This document shows positions 2,750 to 61,177 of a stretch of DNA of 64,000 bases, piece by piece. Origin of the DNA: Planctomycetota bacterium. Lineage in GTDB: Bacteria; Planctomycetota; Planctomycetia; Pirellulales; PNKZ01. The notes below the pieces were generated by a model. It was not told the DNA's origin, searched no databases, and saw only the letters and a program-made list of their open reading frames with translations. How positions within the stretch are numbered: the stretch's first letter is position 1; each line of letters opens with the position of its first letter. The translations under genes were made by a program, and so were the position numbers. The stretch spans positions 79,527 to 143,526 of the forward strand of contig JAFEBQ010000026.1 of the NCBI GenBank assembly GCA_018242585.1. The letters are read 5' to 3'.

Positions 2750-3316
2750 ATGAACCGATCGGTGGGAGACGCGGCCACAATGGCCGGCTGTCTGGTGTTG
2801 GTCGCGCTCGTCTTCTGCTCGATCGTGGCTGGCGCGGCGGAGCAGGATGACGCTAAGAGGCCTGGTGAAGCCGGCGCGCCAGCCGTGCCGGTTTCGCGCG
2901 ACGAAGCGCGCCGGCAAGCACGGCTGTTGCATCAAGCCATGCACAACACGTTGCAGGCGGTCCATCATCAGTACTTTCACGAAGACGAAAATCTGGTTCT
3001 GCCGGCGGCCATGATGAAGGACATTTTCGACGAACTTGAGCAAGAGCAGCGCGTCAAGCTGCGCTGGCTGGTGGTCGACGGCACGGCAATGAATTCCGAT
3101 CACAAGGCCAAGAATCAGTTCGAGCGCGACGCCGTCGAAGCCCTGAAGGCTGGCCAGCGCGAATTTGAATGGGAAGAGCAGGGCCACTATCGCCGCGCCG
3201 GCGCGATCGCGCTCCTCAACCCTTGTCTGAAATGCCACGTCCCCAATCGAACCAATTTGGAAGAACGAACCGCGGGGCTGATTATCAGTATTCCGGTCAA
3301 AGCAAAGCCGGAATGA
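2750..3316 (+). CDS. exported Tll0287/DUF3365-like haem-binding protein
   Basis: A 188-residue protein with a good ribosome-binding site (AAGGAG, 7 bases before ATG). Residues about 10-30 are hydrophobic and end in AGAAEQ, a likely signal peptide. The mature part is helical, with a CLKCH (CXXCH) motif at about residues 159-163 in an NPCLKCHVP context close to the C-terminus. That layout, with a late single CXXCH in a roughly 160-residue domain, is that of the DUF3365/Tll0287-like family, a haem-associated sensory or redox domain. It is monocistronic and faces a convergent gene. Family assignment is by motif and layout, so moderate confidence; it could also be a stand-alone monohaem cytochrome. 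Confidence 0.7.
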   Translation: MNRSVGDAATMAGCLVLVALVFCSIVAGAAEQDDAKRPGEAGAPAVPVSRDEARRQARLLHQAMHNTLQAVHHQYFHEDENLVLPAAMMKDIFDELEQEQRVKLRWLVVDGTAMNSDHKAKNQFERDAVEALKAGQREFEWEEQGHYRRAGAIALLNPCLKCHVPNRTNLEERTAGLIISIPVKAKPE

Positions 3317-3460: not shown

Positions 3461-5503
3461 TTACTTCGTGGCCGGATTCACTAGCCAGGCTTCCACCTGG
3501 CGCTGGACCGGTTGCGATTGCCAAACGAACAGGCTTTGCGAAGGCTCGTCATAGACCAGGGCGCCCGCCCCGCCGGCCGATTGCCAGCGCGTCGGCGACA
3601 CCTCGTTGCGCAGCCGTTCGATCAAGGCCGCGGGCTGCACGCCGGCCTTGATGTAGGGCGCGGCCGAATAGACTTCCAACTCGCCATGCTGGTCGACGAC
3701 TTGTTGTGACGTGATCTGCACGGTCGTCTCGTCAAAAGCCCGCCAGGCCAGCCCCAACGGGTTGAGCGCCTGATCCAGCGCGTCGCGCAGCGGCCGGTCG
3801 CTGACGGCAACCGTCGCCTGGCTGCCGGCGAATCGTCCAGCCGCGGCCAAGGCCACGCCGTCGGCGGGCAACTGAACCTCGGCCACCTCCTCAAGTTTAG
3901 ACAGCACTTGCCCCAGCGGGGCCGAGTTGCTGAAGTTAATCGTCACCGCGCCGTCGAGCTTTTGCCGGGCCGCCGTCGAACGACTGACGTTGCGCGGCGG
4001 CTTGGCCACGGTATTCTTGATGGACAGGTGGCGAGCCACGCGCAAGCGATCGAGGAAACCGGTCACGGCGGCTTGCATCTCGGCCGTGTGCCGGATGTTC
4101 AGCTTACCACCGGTCACGTTCGCGACTCCCTCGCCTCCTTGCGCGGCCCACGAGGTCGGCTCGACGAGCGTGGTGACCAACTTGACCACCGTGGCGGGAT
4201 CACTGCCGGCCAAATCGGAAATGTCGTAGTCGCGCGCAGTTGCCAGGTTCTTGTGCCGCACGTCGGTCGTGACCAGCAGTTGGCCGCCATGTTCGACGGC
4301 GATCAACCCGCGCGGGCCAAGTGCGCAAGCCAGCACTTCCGTCAGCGTGACATTCTTGGCGTCGATGGTGACCGGGTCGCGCAAGGTGACGCCGGCTTCG
4401 GCCAGCGCGTCGAGATCGAACGTCACCGGCACCGCGTTGGTCAGGCCGATCATGTTCGCGAAGCGGGCCAGTGATTTGTTGAACTTGATGCCCGGCACCT
4501 TGTGCAGCAAACTTTCTTGAATGTTGACCGGGGGAATCGTGTCGGCCGGGCGAACGTGTACCGCCGAACGAGGCTGCAACGTGTCGAGGGCGGACGGTGG
4601 ATCGATCTTGGGCAGGACCGGCTTTTCAGGCTCGGCCACGGGCGCCGCCGCGGGAACGGCGGGCATCGCAGCCGGAGCAGGATTCGTCACCGCAGCCACT
4701 TGAACAGGTTCAGCAGCCGGCTTTGGAGCGACCGGAACAGGCGGCATAGCGGGCACCGCAGGCGCCGAGTCCGCTCGCTGTCCACCTCCGTCTTTTTGTT
4801 GGGCCGCAGGCGCGGAGAATACGTTATTGGGAACCACGGGCGCTGTGGGCGCCGGAGCGGTGATCGCCGCGGGCTGCGGCACTAGCACAGTCGGAGTTGT
4901 CGTTGTGGTCACGACCGCGGGGACGACCGACGCTGGTGTGACGGCCACGGCCACTTCCGTGTTGGCGGCGTTACCACTGGTCACCCAGGCGGCCACGGCA
5001 GCTGACAAGATACCAGCCACCGGGATCAACACCCAGGGGAGCCAAGCCAGGGACGATCGTGACGGCGCGGCCTGCAGCAAATCGGGCAAGGGCGGCGCGT
5101 TCGATGCCGCCGGCGCGATTTTCGCCGCCGCGACGCTCGTGGGCGCGGACGCTGGCGGCTTGGACGAAGTTTTTTCCGGCGCTGGGCGCGCGGGCTGCTT
5201 CGGTGCCGCCGCATTGCGCGCGGCATTGGCGGCCGGCGAATCGCTCCAGGCCAAATCATCGAACGGTGTCGTCACGGCGCCGGCGGCAGCCGCGCCAGTG
5301 ATGATGCCCGACGACGAGGCCGAGGCCAGTTGTGATTGCGAGTCGGACGCTGCGGCCGACGATCCGGGCTGCCAACCTGCGGGGGGCGCAATCTGCACCA
5401 TGCCGCCGCACTTGGGACAGCCGACGATCTGGCCGATGATGTCGCTGTTGACGACCTTCAGCTTGGACTTGCAGGTCAAACAGCGTACTGAAAACAGTTC
5501 CAC
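3461..5503 (-). CDS. zinc-ribbon membrane protein with two STN-like modules
   Basis: 680 residues, GTG start with a weak AAGG-type site. Residues 1-35 form a zinc ribbon (C8, C11, C29, C32), a leader common in planctomycete membrane proteins. After an Ala/Pro-rich stretch, a single membrane segment spans about 148-172 (LAWLPWVLIPVAGILSAAV). A long Pro/Ala/Val linker to about residue 330 is followed by a probable periplasmic part. This holds two regions resembling secretin/TonB short N-terminal (STN) domains: about 360-415 (VTLRDPVTIDAKNVTL, then LLVTT) and about 515-600 (VTINFSNSAPLGQVL, then a second ALNPLGL segment). No enzyme motif was seen. It lies 111 bp downstream of the pseudokinase gene on the same strand, and the shared architecture suggests they work together. 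Function unknown. Confidence 0.85.
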   Translation of the reverse strand: MELFSVRCLTCKSKLKVVNSDIIGQIVGCPKCGGMVQIAPPAGWQPGSSAAASDSQSQLASASSSGIITGAAAAGAVTTPFDDLAWSDSPAANAARNAAAPKQPARPAPEKTSSKPPASAPTSVAAAKIAPAASNAPPLPDLLQAAPSRSSLAWLPWVLIPVAGILSAAVAAWVTSGNAANTEVAVAVTPASVVPAVVTTTTTPTVLVPQPAAITAPAPTAPVVPNNVFSAPAAQQKDGGGQRADSAPAVPAMPPVPVAPKPAAEPVQVAAVTNPAPAAMPAVPAAAPVAEPEKPVLPKIDPPSALDTLQPRSAVHVRPADTIPPVNIQESLLHKVPGIKFNKSLARFANMIGLTNAVPVTFDLDALAEAGVTLRDPVTIDAKNVTLTEVLACALGPRGLIAVEHGGQLLVTTDVRHKNLATARDYDISDLAGSDPATVVKLVTTLVEPTSWAAQGGEGVANVTGGKLNIRHTAEMQAAVTGFLDRLRVARHLSIKNTVAKPPRNVSRSTAARQKLDGAVTINFSNSAPLGQVLSKLEEVAEVQLPADGVALAAAGRFAGSQATVAVSDRPLRDALDQALNPLGLAWRAFDETTVQITSQQVVDQHGELEVYSAAPYIKAGVQPAALIERLRNEVSPTRWQSAGGAGALVYDEPSQSLFVWQSQPVQRQVEAWLVNPATK

Positions 5504-5614: not shown

Positions 5615-8600
5615 TTATTTCTTCTTTTTCGGGTCCGGCGCGCCAGCGAACTCGGGGGGCAGCGTGTCCCCACGCTTGGCGGTCTGGGCCCGCGTGCTGA
5701 CGAACAACGTTTCCGACCCGTCGATGTCGGGTTTGATGAAATAGACCAGCTTGCCCTCTGGGCTAGCCCGCATGAAGATCGTCATCAAAATTTCCCGGAT
5801 GCTCTTGTTCTTCTCGTCCAGGGTAAAGGACTGGTTCTTGGTGATGCCGTCGAGCTGCAAGTCGCCCCCCATGATCACAATCGGAGATCCCAGTTCGTCG
5901 GCCAGCAATTGCATCGAGACTTCCAGCGTATTCTTTGGGAACGAGAGTGACGTGACCTTGTTCAACTTGTCGGCCGTGGTCTGCGGCCCAGCCCCTGCCG
6001 GCGCGGCGGTCATGCCCGGCGCCGCCGGCGCTCCGCCCGCAGGCGCAGCCGCGACGACCGCGACCGGCGCGACGCCAATTGGGTTCTCGAGCATGGCCAG
6101 ATGCGTCCCCAAGGCCAGGTGCAAGGCCGCCCCGGCCGGCAAGTAGCACCGGGCGATCACCTGCTTGTCGAGTACGCCAAATCTGAGCGCGTGATCGGCC
6201 AGCTTCACACGGTCGTCGAAGTCGGCCAGGATCGGCAAGCTGAACGGCGTCTTGGCCAGCGAAGCGTTGTAGAGCTTCACGCGGCGCGGCAATTGTTTGG
6301 CGCGTTCCAGGTACGCCGCCGCAGCGGTCGCTTCCTTGACCGTGGCGTCGGGGTTCGACAGTCGCGCCTCGGCAAAGAACGCGCCGTCGCTGAAGTGAGC
6401 GCTCAGCAAGATCACCTTCGGCGCTTCGGTCGTTCCTTCCGCATCGCCAGCGCCGGTCAGGAGCCATTCGACCGGCTCCTTGAGCTTGGCGCCCAGCCCT
6501 TCGAAGATCGCCCCGCCCGCCCCTTCCAGGAACTTGTGCGGGAAGATCCAAGTGAATTGCCGCTCGGCGTCGGTCGACTGCATCATCTTCTCGACCTCGG
6601 GCGAGAAGATCACCGCGTCGCCGTCGATCATCCCTTTGATTTCCTCGGGCGGCGCGATCGCCACGAACTTGCCGCCGCCATCGGCAGGGATGTAATAGCC
6701 GCGGCCGTCGCGTATGTAGTACTTCTTGTCACCGACGGGTTGCGGTTGCGGGTTGCCCCAGGCCGTCAACAGCGTCGCCTCTTCGACCGGCTCGACCAGT
6801 CGGGCGACAACGGCCAACACGCCATGCGCGTCGTGGCTTTGCGGCCAGCAGATGATCGCTTGCTCGATGTTATCCAGCGGCACACCGACCAGCGCCGGCA
6901 ACGACGTGGCCAGCCAGCGTCCCGGCACGCCCAACGGATTCTGCCCGGCCAGCTTTTCGATCTGCGGCGACATCTCCGGAGCGAGCAGAAGTTTGGCCTC
7001 GGGCTGTTTCAGCAAATCGGCCGGGCGCACGATCAGGATCGACTGCATAAACTGGGCCATGTACCTGATTTCGGTCGGCGTCAGCGGCTTGCCCGACGTC
7101 GGCGACGCCCAGATCGGCTCGTTCGCGCCGGCAATCGCTTCGCCCTTGGCCTTCTCGACTGCTGGCTTCGCTTCGCCGGGCTGCTCCGTCATTGCGCCCG
7201 GTGCATTGGTGGCCGAGCCATCAGTTGCCGGTTGAGTACCAGGCGTGCCGGTTGACGGAACGCCGGTCGCGGGGACCGACGGCTTGGTGCCAGTGCTGGC
7301 CTGTGGATTGGCATTGGCTTGAACATTGGCCTCGGTCTTGTCCCCACCGCCGCCGACGAGCGCCATCAGGTCAAAGCCGCTAAAGTGCAAGCCCACGGCG
7401 GTTCCGACCAGGGCCAACAGCAGCACGACGGCAATCAAAGGCAGGCTCGAACTCTTCTTGCGCCGCAGGGCGCGCTCTGCCAGAATGCCACCGTCGCTAG
7501 GGGCCGAGTCGAAGCCCATCCCCATCGGCGCGCCGCTCGGTGCGCCCATCACGGGCGCGGCCATCATCGGCGCGGCCATCATCGGCGCGCCCATCGCGCC
7601 GTAAGGATCAGCCGCGGGCATGGCCATCACTGGCGCAGCCATCATGGGCGATCCGCCGACAGGCATGGCGGTCATCGGTGCTCCCATCATCGATCCGGCC
7701 GGCATGGCCATGGGCACTGCGCCCCCTGCGCTCATGGCACCGTAAGGATCGGCCGTGGGCATCGCCATGACTGGCGTCGCCATCATCGGCGCTATGTTCG
7801 GGTTGACCGGCATGGCGACCATCGGCGCTTGCACCGGCGGAATCGGGTCAGCCATCACCGCGGCGGCCATGGGCGCCGGCGTCGCGCTAGGCGCGGGGGT
7901 GGCGCTGGGGGCTGCCGGGGTCGCATTGGCCGGCGGAGCCGGAGGCGGCGCGACGTTCTTTTTCAGCCAGACCTCGTACGCTTTGCCGGCGGCCGTGGTG
8001 CTGAGTTGTTCCGACTGAGCAGCCCCGGGGGGCAAGTGCTCAAGCAACGCCTCGACGATGCTGTCGGCGCGCTGGTAGCGCATATCCGGGTCTTTGGCGA
8101 TCATATAGCCGACCAAGCGCGACAGTTCGGGCGTGACGGCGGGATTCAGTTTTTCGAGCGGCGTCGGCTCGGCGGCGGCGTGGCGTTGCAGTTTTTGCTG
8201 CAGCGTGCCGCCGGGGAATGGCACCTGGTTCGACAACATCTGGTACAGAGTACACCCGAGGCTGTACAGGTCGCTGCGCGCGTCGGGGGCGCGCGAGCCG
8301 TCGAGTAATTCAGGTGCGGTATAGTCGGCCTCGACCGGCAATTTGCCTTCCTGACGATTGCCCGACAGCACATCAGCCAACCAGGCCCGCGGCGGCGCAA
8401 GCGGATCGCGCGACAACGGGAACAACAAGATGCGGACGTGTCCGTTGCGGTCGACCCACAGGTTGGCGGGACGGATTTCCTCGTGAACCTGCCCCATGGC
8501 GTGCAAGCGGCCCAAGCCCAGCGCCGCCTGGCGAGCAATCCGGCAGGCCTCGCGCGGATCGAGCGCCCCTTGCGTGGCGAGCAGACGTTCGACGCGCTTT

Positions 8601-9082
8601 CCCTGCAAGTCGTCGAGGACGATGAACTTGAAGCGCCCCTCGTCGGCCAGATAGTACGTGCGAAACAGGTTCGGGTGTCCCAAGCTGGCGCGATTGGCCA
8701 TGCCAGCCTGCTGCGCCAAGCTGGCCAAGACTTGCGAGTCTTGGACCGTCGCCCCGGATAGGAAAAACAGACAAACGCGATGACTGGTCGGGGTGTGGAA
8801 CGCGCGAAAGATGCCCGCCAGGCGTCCGCTTTCGATCCGGTCATAGATCAGGTAATCGCCGTAGCGAAACGGCCCCGCACGACCGGCCAACAGGATCTTG
8901 GCCTGATAGGGACTGATCTTTTGATTGCTGACCAGCCATTGAGCCACCTTGTCGGGGGACAGCTTCCCGGCGGCTTCCATCTTTTGCGACGCTTCGAAGA
9001 GCTTGGCCAGCTCCTCATTCTTGAGGAGCCTGCTCTCGGACAGGTGCTTCCAAAATGTTTGAAGGTTTGAGGTTGTCGCCAT
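5615..9082 (-). CDS. membrane protein kinase-like protein, probable pseudokinase
   Basis: 1155 residues, starting at ATG 9082; an in-frame extension to 9124 is possible but lies outside the conserved leader. Residues 1-60 are the helical leader usual in planctomycete Ser/Thr kinases. A kinase-like fold follows (about 60-350), including the late DLYSLGCTLYQML helix. Key residues are missing: the Gly loop reads IESGRLAGIF, the VAIK position reads RVCLFFL, HRD is HEE (HEEIRPAN, about residue 197), and DFG is replaced in ILLFPLSRD. Phosphotransfer therefore looks unlikely. A Met/Ala/Pro-rich repetitive linker (about 370-530) leads to one membrane segment (about 543-565), a large extracytoplasmic part and a C-terminal STN-like module (about 1030-1130). 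It probably acts as a transmembrane scaffold or sensor and is likely cotranscribed with the zinc-ribbon gene. Confidence 0.87.
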   Translation of the reverse strand: MATTSNLQTFWKHLSESRLLKNEELAKLFEASQKMEAAGKLSPDKVAQWLVSNQKISPYQAKILLAGRAGPFRYGDYLIYDRIESGRLAGIFRAFHTPTSHRVCLFFLSGATVQDSQVLASLAQQAGMANRASLGHPNLFRTYYLADEGRFKFIVLDDLQGKRVERLLATQGALDPREACRIARQAALGLGRLHAMGQVHEEIRPANLWVDRNGHVRILLFPLSRDPLAPPRAWLADVLSGNRQEGKLPVEADYTAPELLDGSRAPDARSDLYSLGCTLYQMLSNQVPFPGGTLQQKLQRHAAAEPTPLEKLNPAVTPELSRLVGYMIAKDPDMRYQRADSIVEALLEHLPPGAAQSEQLSTTAAGKAYEVWLKKNVAPPPAPPANATPAAPSATPAPSATPAPMAAAVMADPIPPVQAPMVAMPVNPNIAPMMATPVMAMPTADPYGAMSAGGAVPMAMPAGSMMGAPMTAMPVGGSPMMAAPVMAMPAADPYGAMGAPMMAAPMMAAPVMGAPSGAPMGMGFDSAPSDGGILAERALRRKKSSSLPLIAVVLLLALVGTAVGLHFSGFDLMALVGGGGDKTEANVQANANPQASTGTKPSVPATGVPSTGTPGTQPATDGSATNAPGAMTEQPGEAKPAVEKAKGEAIAGANEPIWASPTSGKPLTPTEIRYMAQFMQSILIVRPADLLKQPEAKLLLAPEMSPQIEKLAGQNPLGVPGRWLATSLPALVGVPLDNIEQAIICWPQSHDAHGVLAVVARLVEPVEEATLLTAWGNPQPQPVGDKKYYIRDGRGYYIPADGGGKFVAIAPPEEIKGMIDGDAVIFSPEVEKMMQSTDAERQFTWIFPHKFLEGAGGAIFEGLGAKLKEPVEWLLTGAGDAEGTTEAPKVILLSAHFSDGAFFAEARLSNPDATVKEATAAAAYLERAKQLPRRVKLYNASLAKTPFSLPILADFDDRVKLADHALRFGVLDKQVIARCYLPAGAALHLALGTHLAMLENPIGVAPVAVVAAAPAGGAPAAPGMTAAPAGAGPQTTADKLNKVTSLSFPKNTLEVSMQLLADELGSPIVIMGGDLQLDGITKNQSFTLDEKNKSIREILMTIFMRASPEGKLVYFIKPDIDGSETLFVSTRAQTAKRGDTLPPEFAGAPDPKKKK

Positions 9083-9598
9083 GGGAACCAGATTCAATCG
9101 CTCGAGCGCCGCCGTCCTGGCCACCGCGCGGCCAATGGGTCTGTAATGACAGCCCGGGGCGTGCGCCTTGTTAGACGCGACGCCTACAGCTTCAGTTCAA
9201 CAAAAAAGGGGAACGCGCTTCGCGCTTTTTCAGCGAATTGCCCCACGGGTCATGGATGGCGGGCGTGCCGTGTTGACCCAACATACACGGCCTATTCAGT
9301 TTAGCCCGAGCGGATCGATTACACAAAGGTTTAGGACAATACTCAGCGTGGCATGAATAACGGGTTTTTAATGGCCGTTTCACCCTCCTAACCCCATCGC
9401 CAACAAGTGAATCGGCCAGAGGTTGCGCTTTTGGCCGATGCAAACCGATAGGACTGCTGGCGTCCATACCCCGCGCGTCGCATTGAGTCGATGAGGGCAC
9501 ACCGATAAGATTCCCGCGCCCCGTCCCCAGGCCGAAGCGTAGACTTTTCATAGCGGTTGGCATCGAACGACTGCCTGACCTTGCGAGACGAAACATCC
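9083..9598. other. divergent intergenic region
   Basis: 516 bp between the pseudokinase gene (minus) and glutamate dehydrogenase (plus). It must hold promoters for both directions. The stretch 9260-9380 is richer in A+T than the flanking genes and is the likeliest promoter area, but no convincing pair of -35/-10 boxes was found. No open frame here looks coding. Confidence 0.5.
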
Positions 9599-10834
9599 AT
9601 GAGCGAACTGGACTCCACTCAGCACTACTTCCATAAAGCCGCCGATCAGATCGAACTGAACGATAATATTCGACGGCTGCTGTTGATGCCCAAGCGCGAG
9701 GTCCAGGTCCAAGTGGCCATCGAGCGCGACGACGGCGAAATCGCCACTTATGTCGGCTATCGCGTCCAGCACGACGACTCGCGCGGCCCGATGAAAGGCG
9801 GCTTGCGCTACCATCCAGACGTCAGCCTGGACGAAGTCCGCTCACTGGCCGCGCTGATGACCTGGAAGACGGCGGTCGTGAACATCCCCTATGGCGGCGC
9901 CAAAGGGGGCATCGCCATCGACCCGCGCCAGGTCAGCCCGCGCGAGTTGGAGCGGATCACGCGCGCCTTCGTTGACGGCATTCACGACGTGATCGGTCCG
10001 GACGTCGATATTCCCGCACCCGACATGGGGACCAACGACCGGGTGATGGCCTGGTTCATGAATCAATACGGCAAGTACCACGGCTTCAGCCCCGCGGTCG
10101 TCACCGGTAAGCCGGTCGAAATGCACGGCCTGCCGGGACGCGAGGAAGCGACCGGGCGCGGTGTGGGCATTGTGACCATGAAGCTCTGCAGCCGGCTGGG
10201 GCGCGACGCGACCAAGCTGCGTGTCGCCATCCAAGGTTTCGGCAACGTCGGCTTCCACACGGCCAAGTTCCTCAGCGACGCCGAGTGTCGTATCGTGGCG
10301 GTCAGCGACGTGAGCGGTGGGTTCTATCGGGCCGATGGGCTCGATATGAAGGGCCTGATGCGCTACGCTCTATCCAATCGCGGCGGCCTGGCCGGTTACA
10401 AGGAAGCCGATCAGTTGAGCAACGCGGAGCTACTTGAGTTGGATGTCGATCTGTTGATTCCGGCGGCGCTTGGCGGTGTGCTGACCAAGCAGAACGCCGA
10501 GAAGATCAAGGCCCCGCTGATCGTCGAAGCGGCCAACTCGCCGACCAATCTGGAAGCCGACGACGTCTTCGATCGTCGCGGGCTGACGGTGTTGCCGGAC
10601 ATTCTGGCCAATGCGGGGGGCGTGACGGCCAGTTATTTCGAGTGGGTCCAGAATCGGCAGCATTACCAGTGGGGCATGAATCGCGTGCGTCAGGAACTGG
10701 ACCAGGTGATGAGCGAGGCCTTTGAGCGGGTTTGGGAAACGGCACAACAACGCAAGGTCAGCCTGCGCACCGCGGCCTACGTCCTGGGCATCGGTCGCGT
10801 GGGCCGTGCTACCGTCTTGGGAGGAGTGACATGA
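9599..10834 (+). CDS. gdhA: glutamate dehydrogenase (Glu/Leu/Phe/Val family)
   Basis: 411 residues from ATG 9599; a TTG 42 bases upstream would add 14 non-conserved residues. It catalyses reversible oxidative deamination of glutamate to 2-oxoglutarate and ammonium with NAD(P). The N-terminal dimerisation/substrate domain contains [10 protein letters not shown] and PYGGAKGGI (lysines near residues 70 and 98). The signature [14 protein letters not shown] follows. The Rossmann domain has GFGNVG near residue 213, then the late EAANSPT and [10 protein letters not shown] motifs. The length fits the hexameric roughly 420-residue class. The coenzyme cannot be settled by eye. The stop overlaps the start of the cyclic-nucleotide-binding gene by four bases. 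Confidence 0.95.
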
Positions 10835-11370
10835 GCGATAAAACTTTGACCGCGGCGCAACTCGAACAGATTCCGATCTTTGCCGGTCTGACGGTCGATC
10901 AATTGAAGCAGTTGAGTGGCGTGGCCGAGTTGGTCGCCGCCCCGGCAGGTCAGACCATTGTCGAACAAGACGGCATGAGCCAGTATCTGTGGGTGTTGCT
11001 CGAAGGACGCTGCGAGGTCGCCCTCGTCGGCAAGCCCAACGAGGCCAAGCAGCCGATCGTCCTAGCCACGTTGGAGCCTTACAGCAACTTTGGCGAGATG
11101 TCCTTCTTTCATGCCGCGCCCCATTCGGCATGCGTGCGTGCGAAGGGGCCGGTGCAGTTGCTGCGTCTGGATCGCGAAGCGTTCGACAAGCTAGGCACGA
11201 CGCAGCCGGCGATTTGCACCCGACTGGCGATGAACACGGTGGCCAATCTGGCCGAGCGGATGCGACGGATGGACAACTGGGTGGCGGAACTGGTGCGCAA
11301 GACGAACGGCCAGAAAGTACCCGACCTGGATCAACTGCGCGTGCAACTGTTTGACAGTTGGAAGCTCTAA
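10831..11370 (+). CDS. cyclic-nucleotide-binding-domain protein without output domain
   Basis: 179 residues from ATG 10831, which overlaps the gdhA stop (ATGA), with GGGAGGAG just upstream. Residues about 12-125 form a Crp/PKA-type beta-roll ([10 protein letters not shown] to [13 protein letters not shown]). In the phosphate-binding cassette, FGEMSFF is followed by APHSACVRA, so the arginine that usually holds the cyclic phosphate is replaced. The remaining C-terminal helices show no helix-turn-helix, so it is probably not a transcription factor. The tight coupling to gdhA suggests an allosteric partner or sensor for nitrogen metabolism, but that is inference. It may bind another ligand or none. 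Confidence 0.88.
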
Positions 11371-51536: not shown

Positions 51537-52586
51537 ATGATTCGATTACTCACCAAGCGCCAATGCGGTTCGATCGGCATCGATCTGGGCACGCGCGCGC
51601 TCAAGCTGGTGCAATTGGATCATGACCGCGCTCAGATCGTCGACGCGGTTCGCTGGGATTTGCCATTCGATGCCCAGGGAGACGCGCGCGGCCAACTGGT
51701 CCGCGCCTTGCAACAAGCTCGCGAAGGGCGCAAATTCCGCGGCCGCGACGCGGTGATCTGCCTGGGAGCCAGCGAGTTGTTCGTGCAAAATGTCCGCGTG
51801 GCCAAGCCGGCGGCTGGCGGCGACATCGAACCCTCGGTCCATCAGGAGATGAGCGCGCGGTTGCCGTTTCCGGCCCAGGAAACCGAACTGCGATTCATCG
51901 AAGCCGCCGACGTGCGACAAGGCGACGCGGTTCGTCGCGAGGTGATTGTTACCGCTTGCCATCGACCGATCCTGGACGAGCGTCTGCAACTGATCGAGGA
52001 CGCTGGTTTCCGCCCGCGCGCGGTCGAGTTGGAAGCCAGCGCCTTGCTGCGCTGTTACGAATTGCAATATCGCCGCGACAACGATCGCGACCAGCGGGTG
52101 ATGTACGTCCACGTCGGCAATTCAAGCACGACGGTAATGATCGCCCGGAACGATGAAGTCTCGTTCTTGAAATATATCGATATCGGCGGTCGGCACTTCG
52201 ACGAGGCGCTGGCCCGCGGCTTGAAGATGACCGTGGCCGACGCCTGGGGCCTGCGACGTCACAATGGCGACCGGCGCGTCGATCAGCAGGATCCTGAAGT
52301 CGCGCGGAGCGTGAACGAAGCGGTTCGCCCCGTGCTGGAGCGCTTATTGGGTGAAGTCGCCCTGTGCATACGCTATCACAACGTCACCTTTCGCGGCCAG
52401 GCGCTGCAGCGCGTGGTGCTGGCGGGCGGCGAAGCGACCTCGGTGCTGGCCGAGCGGATGTCGACGGCGCTGAATGCCAAGTGTGAATTGGGAAACCCGC
52501 TGCGCAGTTTCGAGTCGACCCCGCTCGCCGGGCGTAACACGCAATGGGATGTGGCCATCGGCCTGGCGCTGAGGCCAACCGAATAG
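51537..52586 (+). CDS. pilM: pilus assembly protein PilM
   Basis: 349 residues. Actin-like ATPase of the type IV pilus inner-membrane platform. SIGIDLGTRALKLVQLD forms the first phosphate loop, ELEASALLRCYELQY and MYVHVGNSSTTVMIARNDEVSFLKYIDIGG the second phosphate region, and VVLAGGEATSVLAERMS the adenosine motif. It sits in the cytosol bound to the N-terminal tail of PilN. Full length for the family, and followed at once by pilN/O/P-like genes. Confidence 0.92.
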   Translation: MIRLLTKRQCGSIGIDLGTRALKLVQLDHDRAQIVDAVRWDLPFDAQGDARGQLVRALQQAREGRKFRGRDAVICLGASELFVQNVRVAKPAAGGDIEPSVHQEMSARLPFPAQETELRFIEAADVRQGDAVRREVIVTACHRPILDERLQLIEDAGFRPRAVELEASALLRCYELQYRRDNDRDQRVMYVHVGNSSTTVMIARNDEVSFLKYIDIGGRHFDEALARGLKMTVADAWGLRRHNGDRRVDQQDPEVARSVNEAVRPVLERLLGEVALCIRYHNVTFRGQALQRVVLAGGEATSVLAERMSTALNAKCELGNPLRSFESTPLAGRNTQWDVAIGLALRPTE

Positions 52587-52607
52587 CGGCGCGCGTTCCA
52601 GCGAATC

Positions 52608-53351
52608 ATGAGCACGAACATCAAACAAATCGATTTCCTGCCCGACCGCTACCGGCAGGTTGACGTGCAACGCCACTCGAAGTGGTGGCGGATGCTCGTG
52701 CTCGTTCTGTTTGGCGGCGCGATTTGCGCCACCCAGGTTGGGCAGATGTGCCAGCGACGCCAGGTGCAGGCTCAACTCGACGACGCCACGCTCCATTACC
52801 AAGCCGCCCAATTGGAAAGCCAGAAGCTCGCCAATATCCGCCAGACGCTGGTACCCCTGCGTGCGAAGGCGGAACTGCTTACGTACCTGCGCCACCCCTG
52901 GCCCCGCTCGCAGTTGCTGGCCTCGATCGCCGCGCCGTTGCCCAATGATGTGCTGCTGGAACGCGTGCGCTTTCAGCGCGAGCAGATTCGCACGGAACCC
53001 ACGGTGGCCGCGCCACCACCCCAGCCAGGCGTCGCGGCGGCTGACATGCGCACCCCCGTCGAACGCGACCTGGAAAAAGTTCGTGATGAAGCCGACCAGT
53101 CGCGCATCGTGATCTACCTGGAAGGGACGACGCGCGACGACGCCTCGCTGCACAACTACTTGAGCCTGCTGACACGCGAACCATTGCTGGCCGAAAACGA
53201 ATTGGCTTCGCTGGAACGGGACCAGGCGCATTTACGCTTTACCGTCCGAGTTCTAGTTCGCCCGGGTTACGGCCAACGGCGCGGGCCCGCCGGTCCGCGA
53301 CCAGCCGAGTCGACAGTCGGCGCGTTAAGTCCCCTGACGCCCAATCCCTAA
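52608..53351 (+). CDS. pilN: PilN-like assembly protein
   Basis: 247 residues, start 22 bp after pilM. The N-terminal IKQIDFLPDRYRQ stands where PilN has its INLLP motif that binds PilM. One membrane segment follows (WWRMLVLVLFGGAICATQV, about 24-42), then a coiled coil (RRQVQAQLDDATLHYQAAQLESQKLANIRQ) and a periplasmic ferredoxin-like domain with a Pro-rich insert (VAAPPPQPGVAA). It is larger than usual PilN (about 200) because of the insert and a Pro-rich tail. Confidence 0.85.
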   Translation: MSTNIKQIDFLPDRYRQVDVQRHSKWWRMLVLVLFGGAICATQVGQMCQRRQVQAQLDDATLHYQAAQLESQKLANIRQTLVPLRAKAELLTYLRHPWPRSQLLASIAAPLPNDVLLERVRFQREQIRTEPTVAAPPPQPGVAAADMRTPVERDLEKVRDEADQSRIVIYLEGTTRDDASLHNYLSLLTREPLLAENELASLERDQAHLRFTVRVLVRPGYGQRRGPAGPRPAESTVGALSPLTPNP

Positions 53352-53369
53352 CCGCATGCCGCCACGATC

Positions 53370-53918
53370 ATGTTCGATCGCCTGAAGAACAAAACCTGGC
53401 TGGTCACGATGCCCATCGCACTGGGGACGGTCGCTTACGTTTGGCTGCTCTTCCTGCCGGCTCAGCGCGAGGTGGCCGCCATGGGTACCGACATCCAGAA
53501 CAAACTGGCCTTCGCCATGACCGCCGACAAGCTGCGCGCCGAAATTCGCAGCGCCCAGGCCGAGCAAGCCGAAATCGAAACCTACGTCGCCGATTGGCAA
53601 GGTCCGTCAAGCAGCAGTGCCGACCTGGCCCAGGTGTTCTCACGCCTGGCCGACGCCATGCGCGACGCTGGCGTCGAGGCGACCCGCTTTACGCCTGACA
53701 GCCGAACTTCGCTGGCCCAGATGCAGCGCGTTTCGGTACGCATTGGTTGCCGGGGGAGCTATTCGCAATTGCTGCAGTTGCTAGCGGCCTGGGAGCGGTT
53801 GCCGGCGCGAATCTGGGTCGAGGATCTGAATATCCATCATGGCAGCGATGCCACCGCGAAGTTGGAATGCGAGGCAAACCTGGCAATCTTTGCCGTAAAT
53901 TCCGATCAGACTGAATAG
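53370..53918 (+). CDS. pilO: PilO-like assembly protein
   Basis: 182 residues. Single N-terminal membrane helix (WLVTMPIALGTVAYVWLLFLP), coiled coil (RAEIRSAQAEQAEIETYVADW), then a PilO/GspM-type ferredoxin-like domain (LAQVFSRLADAMRDAGVEATRF, then YSQLLQLLAAWERLPARIWVEDLNI). PilO pairs with PilN to join the cytosolic platform to the secretin through PilP. It is 18 bp downstream of the PilN-like gene. Confidence 0.87.
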   Translation: MFDRLKNKTWLVTMPIALGTVAYVWLLFLPAQREVAAMGTDIQNKLAFAMTADKLRAEIRSAQAEQAEIETYVADWQGPSSSSADLAQVFSRLADAMRDAGVEATRFTPDSRTSLAQMQRVSVRIGCRGSYSQLLQLLAAWERLPARIWVEDLNIHHGSDATAKLECEANLAIFAVNSDQTE

Positions 53919-53988
53919 GGAAACTTTTCTGGCCGATAACAGAAGAGCCCGCGTGGTATAGCGCCGCTGTGCTGCCGGGCCGTGTGAG

Positions 53989-54663
53989 ATGACCGTGTCA
54001 CTATCACGTTACGCCAACCAATTACAACGCGAGTTGAAGGCCAACCAGAAGAAGGCGGCCATGCTCGGACTGCTCGGCCTGGTGGCTGTGTGGTTCTGGC
54101 TGCCGTTGCTGATGCCGAAGAGCACTGCCGCTGCGGCACCCGCGCCGTCGCCAGTAGCCGCGGGGACTGCTCCGGCGCCGGCTTCGCCAATCAATCACGA
54201 CAACAAGGCGCCAACTTGGCGCTGGCAAGACCTGGACCAGTGGATGACCGCCGATTTGGAAACCAAGCCGTTCGTGTGGACCGAGGATCAAGGGCGCAAC
54301 CCGTTCGCCCTGGTCAAGCTGCCACCGAGTGAAACAGAAATTGCCGAGGCCCAGGCTAAAGCCGCCCAACAGGAACAGGCGGTTCAACAGAGCCGGTCGG
54401 TATGCACGCCACAAGAGTCAGGCCTGGAACTGAGCAGCACCATGATCGCGCGAGTGCGCAAGGCAACGATCAATGGCAAGACCTACCAGCTTGGCGACGA
54501 GGTGCCGGTCAGCCGGGCGATTGTCTTCACGCTCGTCGGCGTCGAAGTGGGGCATGTGGTTCTCGCCCGTGAAGGTAGTGAGTTTCCCTTGAAGATTCGC
54601 CGCAACACAATGACCAGCAACCAACCGACCGGCAAGCAGACCGCGGCGGCCCTAACGCCTTAA
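53989..54663 (+). CDS. PilP/GspB-like assembly protein
   Basis: 224 residues. A basic N-terminus, a membrane segment (AAMLGLLGLVAVWFWLPLLM, about 23-43), an Ala/Pro-rich linker, then a short RNPFALVKLPP motif as in PilP/GspB linkers and a C-terminal HR-like beta domain (LSSTMIARVRKATINGKTYQLGDEVP, then VFTLVGVEVGHVVLAREG). PilP is normally a lipoprotein; this one has a membrane helix and no lipobox, so it resembles GspB/GspC more. It links the inner-membrane platform to the secretin encoded next. Confidence 0.8.
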   Translation: MTVSLSRYANQLQRELKANQKKAAMLGLLGLVAVWFWLPLLMPKSTAAAAPAPSPVAAGTAPAPASPINHDNKAPTWRWQDLDQWMTADLETKPFVWTEDQGRNPFALVKLPPSETEIAEAQAKAAQQEQAVQQSRSVCTPQESGLELSSTMIARVRKATINGKTYQLGDEVPVSRAIVFTLVGVEVGHVVLAREGSEFPLKIRRNTMTSNQPTGKQTAAALTP

Positions 54664-54698
54664 CACCGCGGGGCGAACGCCCCCCTATTGCGTCACGG

Positions 54699-57167
54699 AT
54701 GACGATGAACCGATCGTTGAAAGCATGGCTGTTGATGGGCTGTGGCGCGCTGGGCGTGACCACCGCCGTCATGCTCGCTCTGTTCACGACTCCGCGGTCG
54801 GCGACCGTCGCGAGCGTGGCTCCGTCGATTGTTGTCAAAGCTCGCGTCGAGCCCGTGCCGCAACTCAGCCAGCCCGACGGCCCTCGCGCGGTCGAAATGT
54901 TGCCGCCAGCCACCACGTCTCATCCCAGCGAGCCTCCCGCGCCGCCGGTGTTCAGCTATGGCTATCCCCAGGCGATGCGCACCGAGCCGCGAATTGCCGG
55001 GCCCACGACGCTGCGCGTGGCGGCCTTGCCGCCGACGATGGCCACTTCGAACCCGATCAGCCCCGACCAGGCGGCCGCGATCCTGAGCCAGTATCCACCC
55101 GAGAAGCAGCAAGCGCTGCAGCAGGCGCTCACTACGATTCAATCGAATCCCGAGATGATGCAGCAGGTCTTGAATGGGCAAATGCCGGCCGGCTTCCCTC
55201 CCGAAGTGAAGCAGATGCTCACGCAAAGCGCGCAGGCGGCCGCGACGCAAAACCAGGCGGGAGCGGCGCCCGGCGGACCAGCCATTGCCCCGCCGGTAAA
55301 TGCGGCCCCCACTCCAGCGCGGGGCGCGGACGATCCGAATGTCGTGGGACCAGCAGCGCAACCGAAGGCTGAACTCCCGGCCCCGGCCGAGCCGGCCGGC
55401 AAGTCGGAATTCGTAATGAAGAAGGACGCCGACGGCGTGCAGAAGATCACGCTGAACATGCAGTCGGCCGACCTGCGCGATGTGCTCGACTTGCTCAGTG
55501 AGCAGGCCGGCTTGAACATCCTGGCTAGCGCCAACGTCGAGGGACGCGTTACCGCGGTCCTCAACAACGTGGAAGTCGACGATGCCCTGGACGCCATTCT
55601 GAAGAGCACGGGCTTTGTCAGCCGGCGCGAAGGGGCCTTCCTATACGTGGGTACGCCGAAGGATTTCGCCGACTTGCGAGTCGCGCTCGACAAGATCGGC
55701 ACGCGCGTCTATCGGCCCAATTACGTGCCCGCCAAGGAATTGATGGCGTTGCTGACGCCGCTGTTGACGCCGTCGGTCGGCAAGCTGAGCGTAACCACGC
55801 CGGCCCAAATTGGCATTGCCGTGAACAGTAACGACGCCGGCGGCGACGGCCCGGCGCACGGCGAGGCGGTGCTGGTCCAGGACTACGAAGCCGTCCTTTG
55901 CCAGATCGACGAAGTCGTGCGTGAACTCGATCGGCGGCCGATGCAAGTGGCGATCGAGGCGATGGTCCTCAGCGTCACGCTCAATGACCAAAACCAATTC
56001 GGCGTCAATTGGCAATTCCTCCGCGATCAACAGAACGTCCGCTTTGGCATCGGCCAGCCGCGCGTCAATCCGCTGAACGGCACGGGTGTGCCCGACGGCA
56101 CCACCGGCGGCACCGTGGGGCAGTTCAATTTCACCCAAGGAGGGCTGTCATTCGCCTTTCTGGATGATTCGCTCGGCGTGTTCATCACGGCCTTGGAAAC
56201 GATCGGCGACATCAACGTCATCGCCCAGCCGCGGCTGTTGTGCCTGAACAAGCAGCGCGCCGAGATTCTGATTGGCTCGCAGATTCCGTACACGACCTCG
56301 ACCGTTACTCAAACCTTCACGACGCAGACGGTCCAGTTTCTGGACATTGGCACGCAACTGCGCTTGCGGCCGTTCATTTCGGCCGATGGGTCGATTCGCA
56401 TGGAGGTTCACCCCGAAATCTCCAGCGCCGGTCAAAGCGTGAACAACGTGCCATCCAAGAACGTCACGCAAGTCACCACCAACATCATGTGCTACGACGG
56501 TTGCACGGTGATCATCGGCGGCTTGCTGGAAGAAGACTTGCAGAGCAATACGACGCAAGTGCCGTTCATCGGCAGCCTGCCGTACGTCGGACAGTTGTTC
56601 CGCACCAAGACCGACTCGATCGTGCGCCGCGAAATCCTGGTGCTGGTCACCCCGCGGATTGTCTACTCGCCGGATTACGACGCGGAAAGCGTCGAAGATC
56701 GACAAGACTTTGAACGCCGACAGACCGTGGCCCGCGACGGCCAGACCCTGCTGAGCCGGTCGCACTCGGCTCGTCGGTTCATTCGCCGCTCGCGCGAAGC
56801 GATCGAACGAGGGGATCTGATTACTGCCCGTCGTTATGCCGACATGGCCGTCAAGTTCGATCCCAGCAACCGCGAGGCGATGGATTTACGAACCGAGCTG
56901 ATGGGGACGCCGACGTTGCGCCGGCCCGAACCGCTGGACCGCAAGGTCGATCGCACGTTGCGAAACACGATGCCAAACACGCCGCCGGCGCCTCCGGCCA
57001 ACGACACGACTGCAAAACTGCTCGACGGCGAAAACGTCTCGCCCTGGCTGCTCGATGAATTGCAGGGACGACCGGGCACTGGTCGGGCCATGCACCCGAA
57101 GGATCCGGGCATCTCCGGCGAGATCCGCTCCATCAAGGTTCCGGAAGCGGTGAGCGATGGGAAATAG
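54699..57167 (+). CDS. type II/IV secretin (GspD/PilQ family)
   Basis: 822 residues. A signal/anchor segment (LKAWLLMGCGALGVTTAVMLALF) is followed by a long Pro/Ala/Gln-rich region to about 240. STN/N0-like domain at about 247-325 (ITLNMQSADLRDVLDLLSEQAGLNILASANVEGRV), N1-like domain to about 400, and the secretin channel at about 410-657 (RPMQVAIEAMVLSVTLNDQNQFGVNW, EILIGSQIPYTTST, VTTNIMCYDGCTVIIGGLLEEDL, LVLVTPRIVYSPD). Past the secretin, about 165 more residues include a TPR-like helix pair (EAIERGDLITARRYADMAVKFDPSNREAMDL). It forms the outer-membrane pore of the machine. Confidence 0.92.
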   Translation: MTMNRSLKAWLLMGCGALGVTTAVMLALFTTPRSATVASVAPSIVVKARVEPVPQLSQPDGPRAVEMLPPATTSHPSEPPAPPVFSYGYPQAMRTEPRIAGPTTLRVAALPPTMATSNPISPDQAAAILSQYPPEKQQALQQALTTIQSNPEMMQQVLNGQMPAGFPPEVKQMLTQSAQAAATQNQAGAAPGGPAIAPPVNAAPTPARGADDPNVVGPAAQPKAELPAPAEPAGKSEFVMKKDADGVQKITLNMQSADLRDVLDLLSEQAGLNILASANVEGRVTAVLNNVEVDDALDAILKSTGFVSRREGAFLYVGTPKDFADLRVALDKIGTRVYRPNYVPAKELMALLTPLLTPSVGKLSVTTPAQIGIAVNSNDAGGDGPAHGEAVLVQDYEAVLCQIDEVVRELDRRPMQVAIEAMVLSVTLNDQNQFGVNWQFLRDQQNVRFGIGQPRVNPLNGTGVPDGTTGGTVGQFNFTQGGLSFAFLDDSLGVFITALETIGDINVIAQPRLLCLNKQRAEILIGSQIPYTTSTVTQTFTTQTVQFLDIGTQLRLRPFISADGSIRMEVHPEISSAGQSVNNVPSKNVTQVTTNIMCYDGCTVIIGGLLEEDLQSNTTQVPFIGSLPYVGQLFRTKTDSIVRREILVLVTPRIVYSPDYDAESVEDRQDFERRQTVARDGQTLLSRSHSARRFIRRSREAIERGDLITARRYADMAVKFDPSNREAMDLRTELMGTPTLRRPEPLDRKVDRTLRNTMPNTPPAPPANDTTAKLLDGENVSPWLLDELQGRPGTGRAMHPKDPGISGEIRSIKVPEAVSDGK

Positions 57168-58560
57168 CGCACGACAAATCGGCGCCATCGCGATAGGGCT
57201 ATGCCTATTGGCTGGCTGCGGCGCGCTGCGCCGCCAATTGGTGGCCGAGGATGTCCGGCCGATGCGCGCCAAGCGTATGGCGGCCGCTTGCCAGGACTTT
57301 GAATCGCGCCGCGATCAGGCCCAATTGGCTGCGGCCAAGTCGTTCCTCGATCATCAGAACTACCGGGCCTGCAACGAACAGCTTAGGCCACTCATCGAGC
57401 GCAATCCCAAGCTGCGCGAGGCTCATTTGCTATTGCTCGAATCGCTGGCCGCCGACGAACGCTGGGACGAGGCCTGCAAGCGTGGAGGGCAAGTACTGGC
57501 CGCGTTTCCCGAAGACGCCGACGCCTTGCACGCCGTGGCCGTGGTCTACGACGCTGCCGGTCATGAGAAAGACGCCTTGGCCTGTTTCGATCGGGCGGCG
57601 CGCGCCGAGGGAACCGCGCCCGCTCCGATCGATCGGGTGACCCAGGCCCATCGTACGCGACGTGTCAGCCAGTCCATCGGGCGCTCGGCCAAAAAGGCGT
57701 CATTAGCGATGCCTGAACCGCCCAGCGAGGAGGCCTCGGGCGATTTGCTGAAGGCTGAACTCAGTGTTGCGCTCGGCGACGAGAACGAAGGCGCCGAGCG
57801 TGTCGGCGCGCTGCAACAGCGGCATCCCGACGCCGATGCAGTGAACGAACTCGCGGCCCGCGTGGGAGTTGACGCCATGCCCGTGCCGCCGCCCGACGTG
57901 CCGGAAACCGCCCCCGTTTCCAATCAAGCTCCAGCGCGAGGCGACTCCAGTGACTCACGCCACTCGGGGGCCAGTTCGCGTCGCCAGGCGCGGCGCCCCG
58001 ACGAGCCTCGCATCCTTCGCCTTTCGGCCGACGGTCCCAGTGATCGCACACCCGCCGAGTCGAACGCGCCAGGGCGATTGAACACGAACGCTCGACCGCT
58101 GCTTCCCACCGATCACATCGCGGCCAAGCCCGAGACTGCCGGGCGGTTGTTGGCCTTGGCAACCAAGGCCCTGGCGTCCGATAACGTGACCACCGCCGAG
58201 AAATATCTGACGCGGTTGATCGACCAGACGGACACCACCGAAGCCGAGGCAATCGACGCGGCAGTGTTACCCCTCAGGCATGAACAGCCGGAATTATCGG
58301 CACAACTGTGCGCGGCGGCGCGGGAACGCTGGCCGCGTGCGGTGCGACTGCTTGAAATCGAAGGAACCGCCCAGTACCGCCTGAAGCGTTATCAAGAGGC
58401 TCGCGGCGCCTTGGAGCGGGCCGTAGCCCTCGACGAAGCGCGGGCCACCACGCATTTCCTGCTGGGGGCGACGTTGCGTCAACTGGGCGAAGATGACGCC
58501 GCCCAGGAGCATCTGCAACGGGCCCGGCAACTCGACCGCCGGTTCGCCACTCAGCCCTAG
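57157..58560 (+). CDS. TPR-repeat lipoprotein
   Basis: 467 residues. The start overlaps the secretin gene by 11 bases, so it is cotranslated. Lipoprotein signal ending LLAGC (C21). TPR-like helix pairs follow: LAAAKSFLDHQNYRACNEQLRPLIERNPKLREAHLLLLESL, WDEACKRGGQVLAAFPEDADALHAVAVVYDAAGHEKDALACFDRAARAE, and at the C-terminus YQEARGALERAVALDEARATTHFLLGATLRQLGEDDAAQEHLQRARQLD. A disordered Pro/Ser/Arg-rich part (about 240-320) separates them. Probably a pilotin-like or scaffold lipoprotein for secretin assembly, in the manner of PilF/PilW, though this is inferred from context. Confidence 0.87.
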   Translation: MGNSARQIGAIAIGLCLLAGCGALRRQLVAEDVRPMRAKRMAAACQDFESRRDQAQLAAAKSFLDHQNYRACNEQLRPLIERNPKLREAHLLLLESLAADERWDEACKRGGQVLAAFPEDADALHAVAVVYDAAGHEKDALACFDRAARAEGTAPAPIDRVTQAHRTRRVSQSIGRSAKKASLAMPEPPSEEASGDLLKAELSVALGDENEGAERVGALQQRHPDADAVNELAARVGVDAMPVPPPDVPETAPVSNQAPARGDSSDSRHSGASSRRQARRPDEPRILRLSADGPSDRTPAESNAPGRLNTNARPLLPTDHIAAKPETAGRLLALATKALASDNVTTAEKYLTRLIDQTDTTEAEAIDAAVLPLRHEQPELSAQLCAAARERWPRAVRLLEIEGTAQYRLKRYQEARGALERAVALDEARATTHFLLGATLRQLGEDDAAQEHLQRARQLDRRFATQP

Positions 58561-58861
58561 ACGCCGTCACAATCGGCGCGACCGGCGTAGACGGAATTGC
58601 GTTCGGTCCTCTCTGACGTTGCCGTATGTGCGACATCGCACTGGCGGTTGCAAGTTGCGGCCCTCTTCGGGCCTGAGCGCGTAACCCGCCCTTAACGGCA
58701 AGCTACAATTTCGCGCCATTCGTGTTGCCAAAAAGAGACCCACCGAGGGGATAACCCCCAAGCCGGGTCTGGCAGCCGTCGGATCGTTCGACGTGCGATC
58801 ATAGTTCGCTCCTCGACGATTTCCGAGACGCTACCACGATCAGATCACTTGCCGTGTGCGA

Positions 58862-60355: not shown

Positions 60356-60401
60356 TCGCAGTGGGGCGTTCTGAGGTTTACAGCTCACGGGACGGAACAT
60401 C

Positions 60402-60794
60402 ATGGGAAAACGAATCCTGCTGTGCGACGACGAGTTGCACATCACCAAGGCGGCGGAGTTCAAGCTGGTCCGAGCCGGCTATGAGGTCGAGTGCGCGTGT
60501 GATGGCGAGTTCGGTTGGCAGGCGATTCAACGCGTGAAGCCGGACCTGCTGATCACCGACTGCCAGATGCCGCGACTCAACGGCCTGCAACTGGTCGAGC
60601 GCATTCGCCAGCAGCCCGAGCTGCAATCGATGCCGATCTTCATGCTGTCGGGCAAGAGCATGGAATTGTCGCACGAAGAGTTGGCTCGGCGCTGGGACGT
60701 GCGGGCCGTGTTGGGCAAGCCATTCAGCCCACGCGAGTTGTTGACCCTGGTTGAACAAGCCATCGGCGTGGCCCACGAGCCGGCCACCGTCTAG
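60402..60794 (+). CDS. stand-alone CheY-like response regulator
   Basis: 130 residues, a receiver domain only. Acidic pocket CDDE (9-11), phosphoacceptor Asp53 in LLITDCQMPRLNGL, switch Ser in FMLSGKS and Lys in LGKPF are all present. No DNA-binding output domain, so it must act by protein contact. It lies 47 bp after the histidine kinase and 44 bp before the STAS gene. Likely substrate of that kinase and regulator of the STAS protein or the assembly ATPase, though this is inference from position. Confidence 0.93.
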   Translation: MGKRILLCDDELHITKAAEFKLVRAGYEVECACDGEFGWQAIQRVKPDLLITDCQMPRLNGLQLVERIRQQPELQSMPIFMLSGKSMELSHEELARRWDVRAVLGKPFSPRELLTLVEQAIGVAHEPATV

Positions 60795-60837
60795 TCGATC
60801 GGACGCGGACGAAACGACGGGGGCGAGGGACTAGGCG

Positions 60838-61164: not shown

Positions 61165-61177
61165 CGCGAGGACGTCG

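What the first reader, a model, noticed from the sequence alone, without database searches (positions are those of the whole stretch)
5615..9082. Transmembrane pseudokinase with an extracytoplasmic STN-like module
The N-terminal domain keeps the planctomycete kinase leader and the overall kinase layout, yet all of the usual catalytic signatures are altered together: Gly loop, VAIK Lys, HRD (HEE) and DFG. It is fused through a Met/Ala/Pro-rich linker and one membrane helix to a large outside part that ends in a secretin-N-domain-like module. A kinase fold turned scaffold joined to an STN module is not an architecture I know from described systems.
Basis: partly seen in the sequence, partly recalled or inferred. 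Interest (0 to 1): 0.62.

Follow-up and report, generated by a model that had tools for sequence, protein, structure and literature searches.

The report
Membrane pseudokinase with secretin-like tip
A widespread group of planctomycete bacteria carries a membrane protein whose inner half is a protein kinase that has lost its catalytic residues and whose outer half ends in a module related to the inner rings of secretion pores; it usually sits beside a gene for a partner protein bearing the same kind of module, so it looks like part of an undescribed cell-envelope complex.

Summary
Window 5615-9082 (-) encodes 1155 residues: leader helices, a Pkinase-fold domain (Pfam 4.2e-24), an Ala/Pro/Met-rich linker, one transmembrane helix, an unclassified ~350-residue outer domain and a ~105-residue C-terminal module. 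In 40 aligned family members none keeps Lys, HRD-Asp and DFG-Asp together; DFG-Gly is Pro in 39 of 40 and HRD-Arg is Gly in 38 of 40, while the F-helix Asp is kept in 40 of 40. The C-terminal module is STN/secretin-N0-like only by profile comparison (93.9%; 30 shuffles at most 3.7%); no single sequence reaches Pfam's cut-off. New here: the gene is the first of a two-gene unit (38 of 38 companions found with it lie just downstream, same strand). The companion has a zinc ribbon, one membrane helix and two STN-N1 units; the long forms scanned add DUF1559. The outer domain occurs in 189 of 246 genomes of the order; in another family of the class a zinc ribbon replaces the pseudokinase. A few lineages lost the kinase. 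Best reading: a non-catalytic docking platform in a secretin-N-type envelope assembly, laid out like EssB/YukC but unrelated. Function is inferred.

The parts
5615..9082 (-). Gene 1: 1155-aa bitopic pseudokinase protein (ATG at 9082; alternative GTG start at 9124)
8873..9082 (-). N-terminal leader (residues 1-70) found before many kinases of this genome
   Evidence: many paralogous kinases match from residues 5-21 onward
8027..8866 (-). Pseudokinase domain (residues 73-352)
   Evidence: PF00069 E 4.2e-24; family profile vs PknB E 1.8e-48
8765..8767 (-). VAIK-Lys position, Phe106
8477..8485 (-). HRD position, His-Glu-Glu 200-202
8417..8425 (-). DFG position, Leu-Phe-Pro 220-222
7448..7987 (-). 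Ala/Pro/Met-rich linker (residues 366-545) with a 15-base tandem repeat at 7537-7595
7388..7444 (-). Transmembrane helix (residues 547-565), N-inside by the preceding RRKK
6077..7222 (-). Outer domain (profile A1), no Pfam or PDB relative found
5654..5968 (-). C-terminal STN / secretin-N0-like module (profile A2, residues 1039-1143)
3461..5503 (-). Gene 2, companion: 680-aa zinc-ribbon / TM / two STN-N1 units, 111 bases downstream of gene 1
5390..5503 (-). Companion N-terminal zinc ribbon (CxxC...CPKC)
   Evidence: Zn_ribbon_LysW E 2.6e-4, under its cut-off; conserved in the companions printed
4994..5050 (-). Companion transmembrane helix (residues 152-170)
4034..4486 (-). Companion STN-N1-like unit 1 (about residues 340-490)
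3464..3961 (-). Companion STN-N1-like unit 2 (about residues 515-680)
   Evidence: PF07660 at residues 563-599, E 1.4e-5 for the whole protein, 1.4e-6 for its C-terminal part

Best explanation
Gene 1 and gene 2 encode two single-pass membrane proteins of one envelope complex. SHOWN by sequence: gene 1 has a cytoplasmic kinase fold without the catalytic triad, a long flexible linker, one membrane helix, an unclassified outer domain and a C-terminal STN/N0-like module; gene 2 has a zinc ribbon, one membrane helix and two STN-N1-like units; the two genes lie together, same order and strand, across most of the order sampled. INFERRED: the pseudokinase does not transfer phosphate but is a docking surface inside the cell for an unknown partner; outside, the N0-like module of gene 1 and the N0-N1 units of gene 2 pack on each other, as N0/N1 domains do in secretin rings (recalled), so that the two proteins form an assembly linking cytoplasm and periplasm. 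More speculative: this assembly serves or regulates a secretin or pilin-type machine, because long companions also carry DUF1559 and the modules are secretin-type. My odds: about 0.9 that it is dead in phosphotransfer, about 0.55 that it is a non-catalytic docking part of a complex with the companion, about 0.25 that a secretin or pilin-type machine is involved.
For: Dead catalytic site shared by the family: 0 of 40 rows keep the triad; DFG-Gly->Pro 39 of 40, HRD-Arg->Gly 38 of 40, F-helix Asp 40 of 40. The 39 family kinase rows in the tree form one side of a 100/100 branch against six active-like paralogues. The fold is constrained: in the same genomes kinase identity to the window (L041 58, L043 56, L044 60%) exceeds outer-domain identity (39, 35, 35%). 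Linkage: 38 of 38 companions found with a listed gene 1 lie just downstream on the same strand, gaps -4 to 309 bases, four overlapping by 4. Shared modules: A2 vs companion profile A3 97.1%, A2 vs secretin N0 93.9%, A3 vs secretin N0 95.5%; controls 0.8, 0.2, 1.0, 0.1% and at most 3.7% in 30 shuffles. Fusions: outer domain inside the companion in L040 and in 3 of 9 f17 companions read. DUF1559 in 10 of 10 long or f21/f17 companions scanned (the short f21 companion L117:10184-11047 was also scanned and has none). Layout precedent: YukC/EssB, a pseudokinase-TM-outer protein described as the interaction hub of T7SSb and unable to bind ATP (PMC9600267 passages).
Against: No interaction, localisation or phenotype is known. 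The pair is not strictly co-inherited: the four f8 loci read (L061, L068, L070, L072) have gene 1 without a companion beside it, and the nine f17 loci read have a companion without a separate gene 1 in the stretch. The kinase part is missing in L069, L074, L075, L076, L084, reduced to the leader in L062 and eroded in L066, L071, L079, L081, so it is not indispensable. No secretin or pilus gene was recognised beside the pair (one search found N0-profile matches only in the companions themselves). The window's own C-terminal module has no STN hit by single sequence.
Confidence: 0.55

Rival explanations
1. Vestigial kinase: the family descends from a receptor-type Ser/Thr kinase, the working parts are now the outer domain and STN-like module, and the kinase part is a decaying passenger of the membrane anchor.
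For: Kinase absent in L069, L074, L075, L076, L084, leader only in L062, eroded in L066, L071, L079, L081; in f21 a zinc ribbon stands in its place.
Against: In most members read the fold is well kept: F-helix Asp 40 of 40, Gly->Pro 39 of 40, mean column identity 44% in the 33 rows used against 27% for the outer domain (the kinase rows left out truncated or eroded ones, which favours this figure).
Confidence: 0.2
2. Trans-envelope signalling receptor of FecR type: the STN-like module senses an outer-membrane transporter or secretin and the pseudokinase acts as allosteric partner of an active kinase or of transcription.
For: STN modules signal in TonB-dependent receptors (recalled); FecR_C matched 4 of 48 A2 members (best 0.0045) and 2 of 31 A3 members (best 2.8e-5); the companion carries a zinc ribbon on the other side of its membrane helix.
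Against: No conserved neighbour family besides the companion, apart from the divergent dehydrogenase and its neighbour, stood out; apparent extra kinase ORFs upstream carry none of the kinase motifs looked for, and the one read was antisense to the dehydrogenase gene.
Confidence: 0.2
3. The domain is an enzyme of another kind (as SelO or SidJ among pseudokinases, recalled), binding nucleotide in an unusual way.
For: Some pseudokinases catalyse other reactions (recalled; a SidJ glutamylation paper appears in the listing).
Against: No conserved polar residue replaces the triad: the Lys position holds 16 different residues, the HRD-Asp position 10, the DFG-Asp position 13 in 40 rows; a Lys in the Gly-loop stretch occurs in only 10 of 39.
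Confidence: 0.05

Closest known systems
EssB/YukC of type VIIb secretion systems
   Same: Cytoplasmic N-terminal pseudokinase, one membrane helix, C-terminal outer domain; interaction hub, no ATP binding (PMC9600267 passages)
   Different: No YukC/EssB model among the Pfam matches of the window protein (E up to 10); outer parts differ: here an unclassified domain plus STN-like module and a zinc-ribbon companion; a different phylum
Bacterial pseudokinase families ActPs1-3, GLW, CP1, DLHK, DYD (PMC12599244; abstract start, passages, sections 9 and 10 seen)
   Same: GLW also has a bulky residue in place of the beta-3 Lys, an altered HRD and a TM region after the kinase domain
   Different: GLW is mainly proteobacterial with a GLW motif; here HGx and xFP. 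No word beginning planctomyc occurs in that paper's main text
Transmembrane Ser/Thr kinases of Planctomycetota (PMC11032199, passages seen)
   Same: Cytoplasmic Pkinase domain, mostly one TM, varied periplasmic domains; the nearest relatives of the kinase part in the same genome are of this kind
   Different: Those analysed for domains are called functional kinases; pseudokinase and secretin do not occur in that paper's main text
Secretin N0/N1 domains (GspD, PilQ), STN PF07660, Secretin_N PF03958
   Same: Profile-level likeness of the C-terminal module and of the companion's units
   Different: No secretin channel domain; the modules are anchored by single membrane helices

Membership tests
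Protein kinase superfamily (fold) | Pkinase profile match with kinase layout | tested here: met
   PF00069 85.8 bits against cut-off 31.7; family profile vs PknB E 1.8e-48
Active Hanks-type Ser/Thr kinase | VAIK Lys, HRD Asp, DFG Asp | tested here: not met
   F, E, L in the window; 0 of 40 rows keep all three
Pseudokinase | Loss of catalytic motifs conserved in orthologues | tested here: met
Pseudokinase | Demonstrated lack of phosphotransfer or nucleotide binding | not testable with these tools
   needs purified protein
STN (PF07660) / secretin N0 | Pfam gathering score reached by the gene-1 module | tested here: not met
   11 of 48 members match at E up to 10, best E 0.0017, window copy none
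STN (PF07660) / secretin N0 | Profile-level homology to secretin N0 | tested here: met
   93.9%, pairwise E 1.5e-7; controls at most 3.7%
STN (PF07660) / secretin N0 | N0 fold in a structure | tested here: inconclusive
   single-sequence AlphaFold model pLDDT 32.6
Secretin | Secretin channel domain PF00263 | tested here: not met
   absent from both proteins
EssB/YukC | YukC/EssB family profile | tested here: not met
   no such match at E up to 10
EssB/YukC | Pseudokinase-TM-outer layout, N-inside | tested here: met
   orientation from charge only
GLW pseudokinases | GLW in place of HRD | tested here: not met
   HEE in the window, mostly HGx in relatives

The most novel reading that the evidence does not exclude
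The pair is the core of an undescribed envelope-spanning assembly of two planctomycete lineages: inner-membrane subunits whose cytoplasmic ends are a pseudokinase and a zinc ribbon and whose periplasmic ends build N0/N1 rings with a DUF1559 part, working on the large planctomycete-specific DUF1559 protein population or on a secretin.
Probability: 0.22. Interest if true: 0.82.

Novelty: new variant of a known kind. Interest (0 to 1): 0.6.

Why it matters
A pseudokinase joined to a membrane helix and an outer module is known as the hub of a secretion machine in Gram-positive bacteria (EssB/YukC). Here a separate family, found across a whole order of planctomycetes, joins a pseudokinase to secretin-N-type modules, with a conserved partner gene. 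It gives a specific two-gene target, open to deletion in cultured planctomycetes, for the open questions of what organises their unusual envelope and what their many DUF1559 proteins do.

Tried and rejected

Kinase-kinase pair: one search suggested a second kinase-like ORF upstream in L041, L044, L047, L065, L068; none of these ORFs shows the kinase motifs looked for, and the one printed (L041) reads as antisense to the dehydrogenase gene; rejected.

The search for related loci in genome contigs found one locus only, a paralogous kinase stretch. WNK-like relocation of the Lys to the Gly loop: a Lys in that stretch in 10 of 39, none conserved; rejected. Pfam and PDB searches for the outer domain gave nothing convincing. 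The promoter/terminator scan was at chance level. Literature: searches gave no description of this architecture; most subscription journals are not held and for most hits only the listing was seen.
Full report
Observation. The reading frame at 5615-9082 (-) is a real gene of 1155 codons. Pfam gives only kinase models above cut-off: PF00069 at residues 82-339, E 4.2e-24. Aligned with six active-like paralogues of the same genome, the invariant Lys is Phe106, HRD is His-Glu-Glu (200-202), DFG is Leu-Phe-Pro (220-222), while the F-helix Asp271 and Gly276 stay. A 180-residue linker with 44 Ala, 35 Pro and 27 Met leads to one clear membrane helix at 547-565 with positive residues before it, then an outer part of about 590 residues.

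Relatives. The outer part was searched in 57 genomes including the window's own: 49 match, mostly once. Stretches around the hits were fetched. Forty proteins gave a match to the N-terminal query and were listed with it; in one (L062) only the leader remains. Counting the window and the 39 others, 0 of 40 keep the catalytic triad: Lys 1 of 40 (two rows have a gap there), HRD-Asp 8 of 40, DFG-Asp 1 of 40; HRD-Arg is Gly in 38, DFG-Gly is Pro in 39, F-helix Asp is kept in 40 of 40. L048 is cut in its N-lobe by the contig. Five more distant proteins (L163-L167) added later also lack the triad and keep the F-helix Asp, though their N-lobe alignment is poor. A maximum-likelihood tree of 45 rows puts the 39 family kinases on one side of a 100/100 branch from the six active-like ones. 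The loss is therefore old and shared, not a defect of one genome. The family profile aligns nearly end to end with PknB crystal sequences (3f61, E 1.8e-48).

The kinase is constrained but not indispensable. In the closest loci it is more alike to the window than the outer domain is (58, 56, 60% against 39, 35, 35% in L041, L043, L044). Yet it is absent in L069, L074, L075, L076 and L084, reduced to its leader in L062 and eroded in L066, L071, L079 and L081. In family f21 of the same class the related outer domain sits behind a zinc ribbon instead (L116-L122 printed; profile matches; Pfam for L117 and L118).

C-terminal module. A2 (48 rows) is well conserved (mean column identity 49%). Single sequences barely see STN: 11 of 48 members at E up to 10, best 0.0017, the window copy none. 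Profiles do: A2 against 17 STN-bearing sequences of the order, most of them in secretin-sized frames, 93.9%, E 1.5e-7; A2 against the companion's C-terminal profile 97.1%, E 4.9e-11; that profile against the same 17 95.5%. That these 17 are secretins rests on their STN scores and frame lengths; their channel domains were not scanned. Controls: 0.8, 0.2, 1.0 and 0.1%, and 30 column shuffles of A2 give at most 3.65% and 1.19%. These E-values are pairwise. PDB profile hits are weak and mixed: among five for A2, PilQ 4ar0 at E 0.93 and a TonB-dependent receptor at 1.3, behind unrelated ones; for A3, GspD 5wq7 at E 0.023 and PilQ at 0.36 head the list of four.

The companion. Immediately downstream (111 bases) lies 3461-5503 (-), 680 aa: CxxC...CPKC ribbon, membrane helix 152-170, two repeated STN-N1-like units. 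Of 31 companion C-termini, 26 match STN (best 1.6e-9) and 9 match Secretin_N (best 6.7e-4) at E up to 1. Clustering the neighbours of 59 stretches (window included) found companions in 40; in the 38 cases where one lies with a listed gene 1, 38 of 38 are downstream on the same strand, gaps -4 to 309, four of them -4. Long companions carry DUF1559 above its cut-off: 8 of 8 scanned, and L118 and L158; the window's companion does not. The gene-1 outer domain is found inside the companion in L040 (1.5e-11) and in three of nine f17 companions read (L155, L158, L160), a fusion argument for a joint function.

Distribution. The outer-domain profile matches 189 of 246 genomes of the order (including weak partial matches in f17), 15 of 246 of the phylum sample and 69 of 118 of the class sample; the best f21 matches listed there run from 1e-32 to 1e-62, and those in f105, f106 and f108 are weak and partial. 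The companion profile matches 246 of 246 order genomes, but with several paralogues per genome; in the f8 genomes most best matches are weak, so f8 seems to have gene 1 without a true companion, and the f17 loci read have the companion without a separate gene 1. The two are thus linked, not inseparable.

Mechanism. Shown: fold, motif losses, membrane layout, module relationships, gene pairing, fusions. Inferred: non-catalytic docking inside; N0/N1 packing between the two proteins outside. Speculative: service to a secretin or a DUF1559/pilin-type system (that DUF1559 proteins are pilin-like is recalled). The window does hold a type IV pilus / type II secretion platform at about 51.5-63 kb (PilM, PilN, PilO, secretin, ATPase), some 42 kb away, which is no evidence of a link. 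The known protein that works most like it is EssB/YukC (PMC9600267, passages); a T4SS protein TraF has been reported as a structural homologue of EssB (PMC13037476, title and abstract start in the listing). DUF1559 is described as the largest paralogue group of Planctopirus limnophila, apparently restricted to Planctomycetes, of unknown function, with two essential members (PMC10632474, passage).

Novelty. Ten literature searches showed no description of a pseudokinase joined to STN modules; this covers the held open library only. I file it as a new variant of membrane pseudokinase hub, not a member of EssB/YukC, whose profile it does not match.

Noticed in passing
window 9557-10834 (+): Glu/Leu/Phe/Val-type dehydrogenase divergent from gene 1; the same family lies in 15 of the 59 stretches clustered, in some with the cyclic-nucleotide-binding protein (window 10732-11370; that family in 5 of 59).
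   Followed up: partly
L087:9694-11616 (own genome, contig C28): A paralogue with outer domain and two tandem STN-like modules but no kinase and no helix over the hydropathy threshold used.
   Followed up: partly
L116, L117, L121: In family f21 the zinc-ribbon version is followed by a second zinc-ribbon/STN gene, a small BFD-like ferredoxin gene and genes that in L117 are an ABC ATPase, a MacB/FtsX permease and an HlyD protein.
   Followed up: partly
window 51537-62944 (+): Type IV pilus / type II secretion platform: PilM, PilN, PilO, secretin with STN and Secretin_N, and a T2SSE ATPase.
   Followed up: partly
window 2750-3316 (+): Small protein with a Tll0287-like domain (1.3e-10), convergent with the companion gene.
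   Followed up: no
L155, L158, L160: f17 companions with two STN-N1 units also hold the gene-1 outer domain (and DUF1559 in L158) in one chain.
   Followed up: yes
own genome, e.g. G000:C50:16727-17551, C49:36886-37185, C16:96982-97494: Further places with STN-N1-like matches besides the companion (10 matches), some in frames of up to 1659 aa.
   Followed up: no
L086:255-2054: Two adjacent short genes each ending in the STN-like module, in a genome where no full gene 1 was found.
   Followed up: no
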